DNA of 64,000 bases, from the NCBI GenBank assembly GCA_030655315.1, contig JAURVT010000043.1:186001-250000 (forward strand), in the 5' to 3' direction. The DNA comes from Nocardioidaceae bacterium. Lineage in GTDB: Bacteria > Actinomycetota > Actinomycetes > Propionibacteriales > Nocardioidaceae. This document shows positions 1,322 to 17,181 of the stretch, in pieces. Made by a program: the position numbers and the translations under genes. Positions within the stretch are counted from its first letter, which is position 1. The number at the start of each line of letters is the position of its first letter. The notes under the pieces were generated by a model. It searched no databases and was not told where the DNA came from. It worked only from the letters and a program-made list of their open reading frames with translations.

Positions 1322-3687
<2,366 letters not shown>

Positions 3688-3702
3688 CCGGCGGGGTCGA
3701 TT

Positions 3703-5189
<1,487 letters not shown>

Positions 5190-5926: not shown

Positions 5927-5962
5927 GATCGAACCGGTCCTCAGGAGACCTGCTCTCCACGG

Positions 5963-5990
5963 TTCGCCGATAAGCGACATTGACTAGACA
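5963..5990 (+). other. Left attachment site: dif-like with degenerate XerD arm
   Basis: XerC arm TTCGCCGATAA (5963-5973) and centre GCGACA (5974-5979) are identical to the right site. The position of the XerD arm reads TTGACTAGACA, which keeps little of the TTATGTCA core. This is the expected junction if the element's own attachment site has a poor XerD arm, as reported for the gonococcal genetic island. Confidence 0.75.
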
Positions 5991-14453: not shown

Positions 14454-14481
14454 TTCGCCGATAAGCGACATTATGTCAGTT
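14454..14481 (+). other. dif: Chromosomal dif site (right attachment site)
   Basis: XerC arm TTCGCCGATAA (14454-14464), centre GCGACA (14465-14470), XerD arm TTATGTCAGTT (14471-14481). From memory, the actinobacterial dif consensus is TTCRCCGATAAT at the left and ACATTATGTCAAGT at the right; this site matches nearly throughout. It is the place where XerCD resolves chromosome dimers near the replication terminus. The XerD arm lies outside the element and ends directly against an ATG at 14482. Confidence 0.85.
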
Positions 14482-14517: not shown

Positions 14518-17181
14518 GTGAGCCAGAACCCGGTGCCGACCGGAGTCCGACGGCACCGGCTCGAGGGTGCCCGGTTCCCCGTCGACGTGCTGCGGCGGCT
14601 GCCGCGGGGCGACCGGCTGGTGGCGCTCGTCGGCGCGTGGCACCACGGCGAGGCGCTGGTGGCGTGGGACCCGGTGACGACGGCCGCGTCGCCGTTCGAC
14701 TGCGAGGCACCGAGCGGGACCGTGGACGCCGAGGCGTTCGGCGGCGGCTGGATCGGCGTCTGGGGCTACCGGCTCGGCGGCGACCTCGAGCAGCTTCCGC
14801 CGTCCCCGCCGCGACCCGTCCCGCAGCCGTCCCACCGGATCGGCTACTACGACCGGGTCCTGCGCCGCGTCGACGGCGTCTGGTGGTTCGAGCAGCTCAC
14901 CGGCCTGCACGCCGAGCCGGTGGAGCGGGCGCGGGCCGCGGCGTTCCTCGACGTCGCCCGAGGTGCCCTGTCGGACTCCCCCGCGTCGGTCGAACGGACG
15001 TTCGACGTGGGTCCGTTCGCCATGACGCCGTCACCGGACGAGCACCTGCTCGCCGTCGCTCGGACCATCGGGCACATCGTGGCCGGGGACGTCTTCCAGG
15101 CCAACCTCGCCGTCAGGCTCGAGGCCACCTTCGCCGGCGATCCGCTGGCCCTGTTCTGCCGCGGGGTCGAGGTGCTGCACCCCGCCCGCGCCGCCTACGT
15201 GGAGGACGACCAGGGCGCGGTCGTCAGCCTCTCCCCCGAGCTGTTCCTGCGTCGCGTCGGTCGGGACGTCGTCACCAGCCCGATCAAGGGCACCGCGCCC
15301 CTGGACACCGACCCCCGGCGCCTGGCCGGGTCGAGCAAGGACCGTGCCGAGAACGTCATGATCGTCGACCTCATGCGCAACGACCTCGGCCGGGTCGCCG
15401 AGCCCGGCGGCGTCCGGGTGACGGCCGTCAACCGGGTGGAGCGGCACGCCGTGTGGCACCTGGTGTCGGACGTGACCGCCCGTCTGCGCGACGACGTGGG
15501 CGACGGCGACCTGCTGCGGGCCACCTTCCCTCCCGGCTCGGTGACGGGCGCGCCGAAGATCCGCGCGATGGAGGTGATCGGCTCGCTCGAGGCGACCGCC
15601 CGGGAGTCCTACACCGGCGCGATCGGCCACCTGAGCCCCCATGCGGGCCTGGAGCTGAACGTCGCGATCCGGACCTTCGAGGTCGCTCACGGGACGGTGT
15701 GGCTCGGCGTCGGTGGCGGCATCGTCGCGGACTCGGACCCACGGGCCGAGCTGGTCGAGTGCTGCACCAAGGCGCTCCCCCTCCTCGCCGCCGTCGGCTC
15801 GTCCCTCGCCACGCCGCTCCCGCCGGAGGCGCCGAGCTCCCCCGGTGCCGACGGCACGCCGCTCCCCCGTCCCCCGCACGCGGCCCTGTTCGAGACGATG
15901 CTGGTGCGGGACGGCCGTGCGGTCGACCTGGGCGACCACCTGGCCCGGCTCGACGCGAGCGCCCGCGAGGTCCTGGGCGCCGGTGTCGGCGACGACCTCC
16001 GGGCGACGGCAACGAACGCGGCGACGACGCTGCGCGGCGACCACCGGCTGCGGATCGACGCCCGTCGTGAGGCCGGACTGGTCCGGACCACCCTGACCAC
16101 CTCCGCCCTCGGCGCCCCGCCGGTGGCGTGCACGCTCGGCGTGCTGACCGTCCCGGGCGGGCTGGGTGCGCACAAGTGGGCCGACCGCGGTCCGCTCGAC
16201 GTCACGCTGCCGCCCGAGCGCGACCAGCTCGTCGTCGACGTCGACGGCAGGGTGCTCGAGACCGGACGTGCCGCGCTCCTCGTCGTCATCGACGACGAGG
16301 TCTGCGCGCCGGTGCTCGACGGGCGGCAGCTGCCGAGCACCGGGCGCGAGCGGGTCCGGGTCGCCCTGGAGCGAGCGGGTCTGCCCCTCGTCGAGCGGAC
16401 GCTGGACCTCCGGGATCTCGCGAGGGCGACCGAGGTGCTCACCGTCAACGCGCTGCGGTCGGTCGTCCCGGTGACGGCGATCGACGGCGTCGGCCGCTGG
16501 CCCGCGGGCTGGGTCACCACCTGGCTGCGGGACGGAGCGCGGGCCGGCCGCGCGGACGGCGGGCGGGCGCGACCGGGCTCCTCCCCCTCGTCGGCTCGGG
16601 TGATGTTCGTCGACAACTACGACTCGTTCGTCCACAACCTGGTGCAGCACGTCGGTGCCCTCGGCGCGCGCACGACGGTCCGACGTCACGACGAGATCAC
16701 CGTCGACGAGCTCGACGGCCTGTGCCGCAGCGGCGAGGTGACGCACGTCGTCATCTCGCCGGGCCCCGGCGGACCGGCCGACGCGGGCATCAGCGTCGAG
16801 GTGGTGCGCCGGCTCGGCCCGACGGTCCCCGTGCTGGGCGTGTGCCTCGGGCACCAGGCGATCGCCCATGCCTACGGGGCGCGGGTCACGAGGTCCGGCA
16901 GCCCGCGGCACGGAAAGCCGTGCCTGGTCCGCCACGACGGGCGGGGCCTGCTCGGCGGCCTCCCGAGCCCCCTGGTCGTCGGCCGCTACCACTCGCTCGT
17001 GGTCGACTCCGCCTCGCTGCCCGACGACCTCGAGGTCACCGCCACCACCCCGTCCGGCCTGGTGATGGGCGTGCGCCACCGTCGCCACCCGGTGGAGGGG
17101 GTGCAGTGGCACCCCGAGTCGATCCTCACCCCCGTCGGGCACGCGATCCTCGACCGGTTCCTCGCCCGCGACCGTCCCTGA
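14518..17181 (+). CDS. Para-aminobenzoate synthase PabB-PabC-PabA triple fusion
   Basis: An 887-aa protein for the folate precursor PABA. The chorismate-binding PabB part (about 1-440) has PIKGTAPLDTDPRRL (catalytic Lys near 257) and GSVTGAPKIRAMEVI. The class IV aminotransferase/lyase PabC part (about 455-690) has FETMLVRDG and GAHKWADRG (PLP Lys near 553). The class I glutamine amidotransferase PabA part (about 695-885) has FVDNYDSFVHNLVQ, LGVCLGHQAI (nucleophile Cys) and WHPESI. All three active sites look intact, so one chain could convert chorismate and glutamine to PABA. GTG 14518 is preferred for its GGCAGGA; in-frame ATG 14482 directly abuts dif. Confidence 0.88.
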   Translation: MSQNPVPTGVRRHRLEGARFPVDVLRRLPRGDRLVALVGAWHHGEALVAWDPVTTAASPFDCEAPSGTVDAEAFGGGWIGVWGYRLGGDLEQLPPSPPRPVPQPSHRIGYYDRVLRRVDGVWWFEQLTGLHAEPVERARAAAFLDVARGALSDSPASVERTFDVGPFAMTPSPDEHLLAVARTIGHIVAGDVFQANLAVRLEATFAGDPLALFCRGVEVLHPARAAYVEDDQGAVVSLSPELFLRRVGRDVVTSPIKGTAPLDTDPRRLAGSSKDRAENVMIVDLMRNDLGRVAEPGGVRVTAVNRVERHAVWHLVSDVTARLRDDVGDGDLLRATFPPGSVTGAPKIRAMEVIGSLEATARESYTGAIGHLSPHAGLELNVAIRTFEVAHGTVWLGVGGGIVADSDPRAELVECCTKALPLLAAVGSSLATPLPPEAPSSPGADGTPLPRPPHAALFETMLVRDGRAVDLGDHLARLDASAREVLGAGVGDDLRATATNAATTLRGDHRLRIDARREAGLVRTTLTTSALGAPPVACTLGVLTVPGGLGAHKWADRGPLDVTLPPERDQLVVDVDGRVLETGRAALLVVIDDEVCAPVLDGRQLPSTGRERVRVALERAGLPLVERTLDLRDLARATEVLTVNALRSVVPVTAIDGVGRWPAGWVTTWLRDGARAGRADGGRARPGSSPSSARVMFVDNYDSFVHNLVQHVGALGARTTVRRHDEITVDELDGLCRSGEVTHVVISPGPGGPADAGISVEVVRRLGPTVPVLGVCLGHQAIAHAYGARVTRSGSPRHGKPCLVRHDGRGLLGGLPSPLVVGRYHSLVVDSASLPDDLEVTATTPSGLVMGVRHRRHPVEGVQWHPESILTPVGHAILDRFLARDRP

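What the first reader, a model, noticed from the sequence alone, without database searches (positions are those of the whole stretch)
14518..17181. Complete PabB-PabC-PabA pathway on one polypeptide
Chorismate-binding, aminodeoxychorismate lyase and glutamine amidotransferase domains occur in this order with all catalytic residues. Two-domain fusions (PabA-PabB, PabB-PabC) are known; an intact three-domain chain with the amidotransferase last seems rare.
Basis: partly seen in the sequence, partly recalled or inferred. Interest (0 to 1): 0.6.

Follow-up and report, generated by a model that had tools for sequence, protein, structure and literature searches.

The report
Three-in-one enzyme for folate's aminobenzoate
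One bacterial gene appears to carry all three enzymes that turn chorismate into the folate building block p-aminobenzoate, joined in an order (synthase, lyase, then ammonia supplier) that differs from the order seen in the one other bacterial group found here with such chains.

Summary
Window 14518-17181 (+) is one 887-aa frame with PabB-like (Chorismate_bind), PabC-like (class IV PLP) and PabA-like (GATase) domains in that order. The expected catalytic residues are present, and AlphaFold gives three confident domains joined by two floppy linkers. The most likely function is a self-contained p-aminobenzoate synthase: A releases ammonia, B makes aminodeoxychorismate, C eliminates pyruvate. The genome holds no other PabA/TrpG match over the curated cut-off.

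"Rare" is only partly right. A natural triple fusion is in print (Corynebacterium diphtheriae DIP1790, both activities shown). B-C-A is usual in the window's relatives: 51 of 245 family genomes match almost full length, 40 of them among the 49 of one genus. Outside the family I saw it in none of the genomes of two wider samples and in one named Streptosporangiaceae MAG. Eight triple fusions read from a Corynebacterium-like genus are A-B-C and lie in another half of the PabB tree, so the two layouts look like independent fusions. I file this as a new variant (new domain order) of a known kind. No activity was tested.

The parts
   Evidence: translation, Pfam, full-length relatives
14578..15807 (+). 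B part: PabB-like chorismate-binding domain, residues 21-430, PIKGT lysine (Lys257) at 15286-15288
   Evidence: Pfam PF00425 174-418; E. coli PabB alignment 73-419; motif position; Foldseek best hits 8rp0/8rp1/1k0e
15832..15873 (+). B-C linker, residues 439-452, predicted disordered
   Evidence: pLDDT under 50
15874..16566 (+). C part: PabC-like fold-type-IV PLP domain, residues 453-683, Lys553 at 16174-16176
   Evidence: Pfam PF01063; invariant K/R/E in 39 sequences; fold match to ADC lyase 2y4r Z 24.4, rmsd 2.5 A over 225 residues
16546..16593 (+). C-A linker, residues 677-692; 677-687 predicted disordered, overlapping the end of the C part as drawn
   Evidence: pLDDT under 50 at 677-687
16597..17172 (+). 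A part: PabA/TrpG-like class I glutamine amidotransferase, residues 694-885; Cys776 at 16843-16845, His865 at 17110-17112, Glu867 at 17116-17118
   Evidence: Pfam PF00117 697-882; TIGR00566 over cut-off; alignment to E. coli PabA; Foldseek 8rp0_AAA rmsd 1.5 A

Best explanation
The gene makes a single-chain p-aminobenzoate (pABA) synthase for folate. The C-terminal A domain hydrolyses glutamine. Its ammonia passes to the N-terminal B domain, which uses the PIKGT lysine to turn chorismate into 4-amino-4-deoxychorismate (ADC). The middle C domain, with PLP on Lys553, removes pyruvate to give pABA. Shown here: one uninterrupted frame, three confidently predicted domains, the catalytic residues, conservation of the whole layout, and no other PabA/TrpG-type amidotransferase over the curated cut-off in the genome. 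Inferred: each activity, ammonia transfer from A to B within the chain, and any advantage from keeping unstable ADC close to the lyase. Evolution (inferred): an actinobacterial PabB-PabC fusion gained PabA at its C-terminus, independently of the A-B-C fusions found in a Corynebacterium-like genus.
For: Domains and motifs. PIKGT lysine rather than the PISGT of the genome's TrpE-TrpG-like chain. Structure: mean pLDDT 91.0 with only segments 1-4, 439-452 and 677-687 under 50; B and A match E. coli PabB and PabA; C matches ADC lyases 3lul (putative, Z 24.6), 2y4r (24.4), 1i2k (23.5). Genome: the fused A is the only TIGR00566 match over the cut-off; the other two Chorismate_bind proteins are an isochorismate synthase over its cut-off and a TrpE-TrpG-like single chain; trpD is present. 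In 31 of 32 genomes with all three domains in one frame, among 42 I chose, the fused A is likewise the only match over the cut-off. Precedent: the DIP1790 triple fusion has both activities; an engineered A-B-C chain made pABA in B. subtilis (passages).
Against: No activity was measured. The window chain misses the curated cut-offs of PabB models (376.7 of 383; 304.9 of 328.4), though relatives L006, L012 and L017 reach one or both. Its C domain is far below the PabC equivalog cut-offs (59.1 of 260; 52.6 of 176.85), and transaminases fit its model as well as lyases do (Z 24.5, 24.2, 24.1), so lyase specificity is not proven. A separate class IV enzyme (L090, 291 aa) could also act as ADC lyase. 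No folate gene was identified among the neighbours scanned.
Confidence: 0.88

Rival explanations
1. The chain is an ADC synthase (A with B) whose C domain no longer works as the lyase; a separate class IV enzyme such as the 291-aa protein on contig 19 does that step.
For: C scores far below PabC equivalog cut-offs. L090 is a full-length class IV protein with higher, though also sub-cut-off, PabC scores of 124 and 121 bits. Two relatives keep a B-A chain with no C detected (L180/L132 of G027 and L027), so C can be dispensable somewhere.
Against: K, R and E are invariant in 39 C domains. Asn644 aligns with an Asn of the lyase 2y4r; PMC8105722 (passages) names an Asn among canonical lyase residues, but I did not verify that it is the same one. 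L090's best sequence matches in the PDB are branched-chain transaminases.
Confidence: 0.08
2. The chain is a secondary-metabolism enzyme making ADC or pABA for a natural product rather than for folate.
For: One genome with B-C-A (G108) also has a separate A-B chain (L169), so two pABA-type systems can coexist.
Against: It is the only PabB-type gene found in the window genome and is full length in 40 of 49 genomes of one genus. The neighbours scanned (GGDEF, ferritin-like, ABC transporter, argininosuccinate synthase) are no biosynthetic cluster.
Confidence: 0.03
3. It is an artefact: separate genes joined by an assembly or reading error.
For: Two relatives are split by frame changes at linkers (G125, G007).
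Against: The same order over at least 855 residues in 51 of 245 family genomes and in 43 distinct chains read.
Confidence: 0.01

Closest known systems
DIP1790 of Corynebacterium diphtheriae (PabAa-PabAb-PabAc triple fusion, PMC1971073)
   Same: All three pABA activities on one natural chain; ADC synthase complementation and ADC lyase assay reported (section 12 read).
   Different: Its sequence was not held, and the section does not give the domain order. Eight triple fusions from an unnamed Corynebacterium-like genus are A-B-C, and their B domains form a clade in the other half of the PabB tree.
PabB-PabC (aminodeoxychorismate synthase component I plus lyase) fusions of Kocuria, Georgenia, Pseudonocardia, Solirubrobacterales
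   Same: Same B and C domains in the same order; Kocuria/Georgenia rows group inside the B-C-A clade.
   Different: No amidotransferase on the chain.
PabA-PabB ADC synthases such as Streptomyces venezuelae 8hx6
   Same: Amidotransferase and chorismate-amination domains on one chain.
   Different: Amidotransferase first, no lyase domain; in the window the amidotransferase is last with the lyase between.
PhzE / TrpE-TrpG single chains (3r74, and the contig-20 protein of this genome)
   Same: Amidotransferase at the C-terminus of a chorismate enzyme (contig-20 protein; 3r74 listed, its layout recalled).
   Different: No PLP domain found; the contig-20 protein has PISGT instead of PIKGT.
B-A two-domain chains L180 (G027) and L027 (Phycicoccus MAG)
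   Same: Same B and A domains, A last.
   Different: No C domain detected between B and A; the gaps between the domain matches are about 31 aa (L180) and 56 aa (L027).

Membership tests
PabB, ADC synthase component I | Curated NCBIfam equivalog score | tested here: not met
   376.7 of 383 (NF004530) and 304.9 of 328.4 (TIGR00553); relatives L006 384.4, L012 388.1 and 329.0, L017 394.6 pass one or both
PabB, ADC synthase component I | PIKGT lysine that separates ADC synthase from TrpE/MenF types (recalled) | tested here: met
   PIKGT at 255-259; Lys in 43 of 43 distinct B-C-A chains
PabA/TrpG amidotransferase | TIGR00566 over its cut-off, Cys-His-Glu triad | tested here: met
   193.5 of 121.05 bits; GVCLGHQ and WHPES; 1.5 A to E. 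coli PabA
PabC, ADC lyase | Class IV PLP fold with Lys, Arg, Glu | tested here: met
   Pfam Aminotran_4 82.7 of 28.5 bits; invariant residues; Z 24.4 to 2y4r
PabC, ADC lyase | Curated NCBIfam PabC equivalog score | tested here: not met
   59.1 of 260, 52.6 of 176.85 for the C part alone
PabC, ADC lyase | Lyase rather than D-amino-acid or branched-chain transaminase | tested here: inconclusive
   Z 24.6-22.5 for lyases, 24.5-24.1 for the best transaminases, tied; Asn644 aligns with an Asn of lyase 2y4r
Natural triple fusion for pABA (DIP1790 kind) | All three domains on one chain | tested here: met
Natural triple fusion for pABA (DIP1790 kind) | Same fusion event and order (A-B-C) | tested here: not met
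   A-B-C in 8 of 12 loci fetched from a Corynebacterium-like genus (picked for long frames), the other 4 A-B with C separate or not in the stretch; B tree separates them 100/100. Order of DIP1790 itself not read
Natural triple fusion for pABA (DIP1790 kind) | ADC synthase and lyase activities | not testable with these tools
   needs expression and assay

The most novel reading that the evidence does not exclude
Complete single-chain pABA synthases arose at least twice in Actinomycetota with opposite placement of the amidotransferase (A-B-C and B-C-A), and possibly a third time in Streptosporangiaceae (L017). In the B-C-A form the lyase sits between ammonia donor and synthase, so that both ammonia and the unstable ADC are handed over inside one chain, perhaps in a dimer held together by the PLP domains.
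Probability: 0.35. Interest if true: 0.45.

Novelty: new variant of a known kind. Interest (0 to 1): 0.3.

Why it matters
ADC is unstable, and fusions of enzymes around unstable intermediates are a recognised pattern; a 2016 survey lists this lyase/synthase pair, citing a C. diphtheriae gene (PMC4921024, passages; taxid checked). A second, differently ordered, probably independent triple fusion would give a natural comparison for whether domain order matters for ammonia transfer and ADC hand-over. It would also be a ready single-gene module for pABA production: an engineered A-B-C chain in B. subtilis cut titre by about 60% against separate enzymes, with lower expression of the fusion (PMC6559200, passages).

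Tried and rejected
Idea: the fused A domain is also the TrpG partner of a free TrpE. Dropped for the window genome: it has no free TrpE. Its three Chorismate_bind proteins are the fusion, an isochorismate synthase and a single-chain TrpE-TrpG-like protein. Each of the 42 genomes has three matches in similar score bands (four in G055, G056, G087, G108); I did not name them one by one, so a free TrpE elsewhere is not excluded.

Idea: the Nocardioides-like PabB is the ancestor of the window B domain. Dropped: those five B rows fall in the other half of the tree.

Single origin of all B-C-A chains: not settled. With L017 left out, the fused A domains (split and B-A forms included) are compatible with one origin (AU p 0.517). 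With L017 included one origin is not rejected (p 0.126), although L017's A groups with planctomycete, proteobacterial and gemmatimonad PabA (99/96). Kocuria/Georgenia B-C rows group inside the B-C-A clade, so either A was lost there or it was gained more than once.

Rows dropped before counting: the B tree used 128 of 142 rows (fragments and near-copies left out); one search was thinned further to 110 rows, 13 of them newly added; the A tree used 47 of 73. In one search all 80 named loci were read; one search read everything fetched by then.

Paper searches with no further report of this order in what I saw: (listings; most hits not opened). Passages of PMC3403918 and PMC7552465 showed a pabABC operon and unrelated trifunctional enzymes. 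I do not claim that the order is unpublished; most subscription papers are not held.

Neighbourhood synteny: no match of five neighbouring frames (GGDEF, ferritin-like, HTH_17, Lsr2, and a spurious 366-aa frame) in 16 relatives' loci; rerun with P0001 as control, which was found in 16 of 16. Some of these loci have short flanks.

Prediction of how A docks on B: no coordinates were available to test it; a pTM of 0.60 leaves the domain arrangement uncertain. A dimer through C is only recalled from other lyases; one close fold match, 9j0v, is described as monomeric.

Full report
OBSERVATION. The frame 14518-17181 (+) gives 887 residues without a stop. Pfam finds Chorismate_bind, Aminotran_4 and GATase in that order, each over its cut-off. 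Motifs: PIKGT 255-259; Lys553 in HKWADR; Arg512; Glu581; GVCLGHQ 774-780; WHPES 864-868. Roles of these residues are recalled from the E. coli enzymes. Among 43 distinct B-C-A chains collected (own chain included), 42 carry all four literal motifs tested and the 43rd differs by PVKGT for PIKGT. Gaps between domain matches run 23-54 aa for B-C and 14-77 aa for C-A.

STRUCTURE. AlphaFold2 on a 34-row alignment gives mean pLDDT 91.0 and pTM 0.60, with segments under 50 only at 1-4, 439-452 and 677-687. So three folded units sit on two flexible joints, and their mutual placement is uncertain. Foldseek matches the B part to E. coli and B. subtilis PabB and the A part to E. coli PabA at 1.5 A. The C part predicted alone has pLDDT 92.4 and pTM 0.87. 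It matches ADC lyases 3lul (putative), 2y4r and 1i2k (Z 24.6, 24.4, 23.5), with transaminases tied (9j0v 24.5, 1a0g 24.2, 6thq 24.1). Fold alone does not tell lyase from transaminase. Sequence gives only a hint: Asn644 lines up with an Asn of lyase 2y4r. PMC8105722 names an Asn among canonical lyase residues (passages only), but I did not verify that it is the same position.

GENOME CONTEXT. The host genome (4.18 Mb, 57 contigs, listed as 100% complete) has one TIGR00566 match over the cut-off, the fused A domain. It has three Chorismate_bind proteins: the fusion, an isochorismate synthase over its cut-off, and a 636-aa TrpE-TrpG-like single chain with PISGT. trpD is present. My inference is that both chorismate-amination enzymes of this organism are single chains and that nothing shares the fused A domain. 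I chose 42 family genomes: 32 with all three domains in one frame, 2 split (G125, G007), 1 without C (G027) and 7 Nocardioides-like controls. In 31 of the 32 there is no other match over the cut-off; G108 has a second one in an A-B chain. All 7 controls carry the match in a separate frame of 189-266 aa.

DISTRIBUTION. Named loci from the genome collection: the scan kept the best 80 of at least 575 relatives, and all 80 were read. L006-L017 (12) have B-C-A: Aeromicrobium (8), two Nocardioidaceae MAGs, an unclassified actinobacterium and a Streptosporangiaceae MAG. Kocuria, Georgenia, Pseudonocardia and Solirubrobacterales have B-C; one Phycicoccus MAG has B-A. In 245 genomes of the own family, 51 match P0001 over at least 855 residues in one place by my count of the printed rows, own genome included; 40 of these are among the 49 genomes of genus g19 (recounted). 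Three of the 51 (G076, G141, G154) have a TGA inside the aligned stretch, but the frames read from their loci still hold all three domains. Two more (G020, G069) match in two pieces of one frame, and G150 matches 165-883 in one frame. Some others are apparently cut by contig ends; two are split by frame changes at linkers (G125, G007), and one has no C (G027). Class sample: 14 of 394 full length in one piece, all own family. Phylum sample: 2 of 396, both own family. Both used E <= 1e-60, and no genome outside the family showed B and A pieces in one frame. I take g19 to be Aeromicrobium because some of its loci share frames with named Aeromicrobium records (L098 and L012, L105 and L006).

THE KNOWN TRIPLE FUSION. 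PMC1971073, section 12 read in full: DIP1790 of C. diphtheriae restored pABA prototrophy to an E. coli pabA pabB mutant, and extracts made pABA from chorismate and glutamine without added lyase. The section does not state the domain order. In 201 genomes of a 2-3.8 Mb genus, in the family that also holds larger mycobacteria-like genomes, no full-length B-C-A match appeared; that this genus is Corynebacterium is my inference. I fetched 12 loci picked for long frames: 8 are A-B-C, 4 are A-B with C separate or outside the stretch. In the careful B tree (110 rows) the 8 A-B-C rows form one clade (99/96), separated from all B-C and B-C-A rows by 100/100 branches. Two separate triple fusions are therefore well supported for the domains compared. 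That DIP1790 itself is A-B-C is likely but unread.

ORIGIN. The Nocardioidaceae B-C-A B domains form a 98/95 clade with Kocuria/Georgenia B-C and two B-A chains. The fused A domains without L017 are compatible with one origin (AU p 0.517); with L017 one origin is not rejected (p 0.126), though L017's A sits with PabA of other phyla. The simplest reading is that PabA was added once to an older actinobacterial B-C fusion, with later loss of A in Kocuria/Georgenia and of C in two chains, and perhaps a separate fusion in L017. Repeated gain of A is not excluded.

MECHANISM. Shown: layout, residues, predicted folds, conservation, absence of another curated PabA match. Inferred: A hydrolyses glutamine and passes ammonia to B; B forms ADC through Lys257; C forms pABA through PLP-Lys553; proximity limits loss of ADC. 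Other ADC lyases are dimers (recalled), so the chain may be a dimer; untested, and one close fold match is described as monomeric (9j0v).

VERDICT. A trifunctional pABA synthase, very probably for folate (0.88). The kind is known; the amidotransferase-last order, its retention across a clade and its independence from the A-B-C chains read here are what is new to me. Against: no activity data, sub-cut-off PabB and PabC equivalog scores, and a second class IV enzyme that could be a lyase.

Noticed in passing
window 14454-14481 and 5962-5981: TTCGCCGATAAGCGACATTATGTCAGTT, ending 36 bases before the pab start, matches the predicted Frankia alni dif site at 21 of 28 positions (PMC3025954 passages). 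A 20-base exact repeat of its first part lies at 5962. The 8.5 kb between is about 58-59% GC against about 70-76% around, with Lsr2, HTH_17, BclA_C/C1q and weakly phage-like frames and no integrase recognised in the ten frames scanned there: it reads like an element integrated at the chromosome's dif site through host Xer recombinases.
   Followed up: partly
L169 (G108) 2127-4106: A genome with B-C-A also carries a separate A-B (PabA-PabB) chain with PIKGT; possibly a second pABA-type enzyme.
   Followed up: no
L161 (G125) near 3515 and L162 (G007): Two single-contig genomes have the fusion split by a frame change at a linker (C-A near a poly-C run; B-C). Real fission, frameshifting or sequence error was not decided.
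   Followed up: partly
L164-L168: Five Nocardioides-like (unnamed g5/g6) genomes keep separate PabA and PabB in one cluster with the TrpE-TrpG single chain; their PabB belongs to a different lineage from the window's.
   Followed up: partly
L052: A MAG named Bifidobacterium breve carries a PabB-PabC chain that groups 100/100 with Svornostia abyssi; the record name is probably wrong.
   Followed up: no
L180 (G027), L027 (Phycicoccus MAG): B-A chains without a detected C within the same clade: the lyase seems to have been cut out, perhaps twice.
   Followed up: partly
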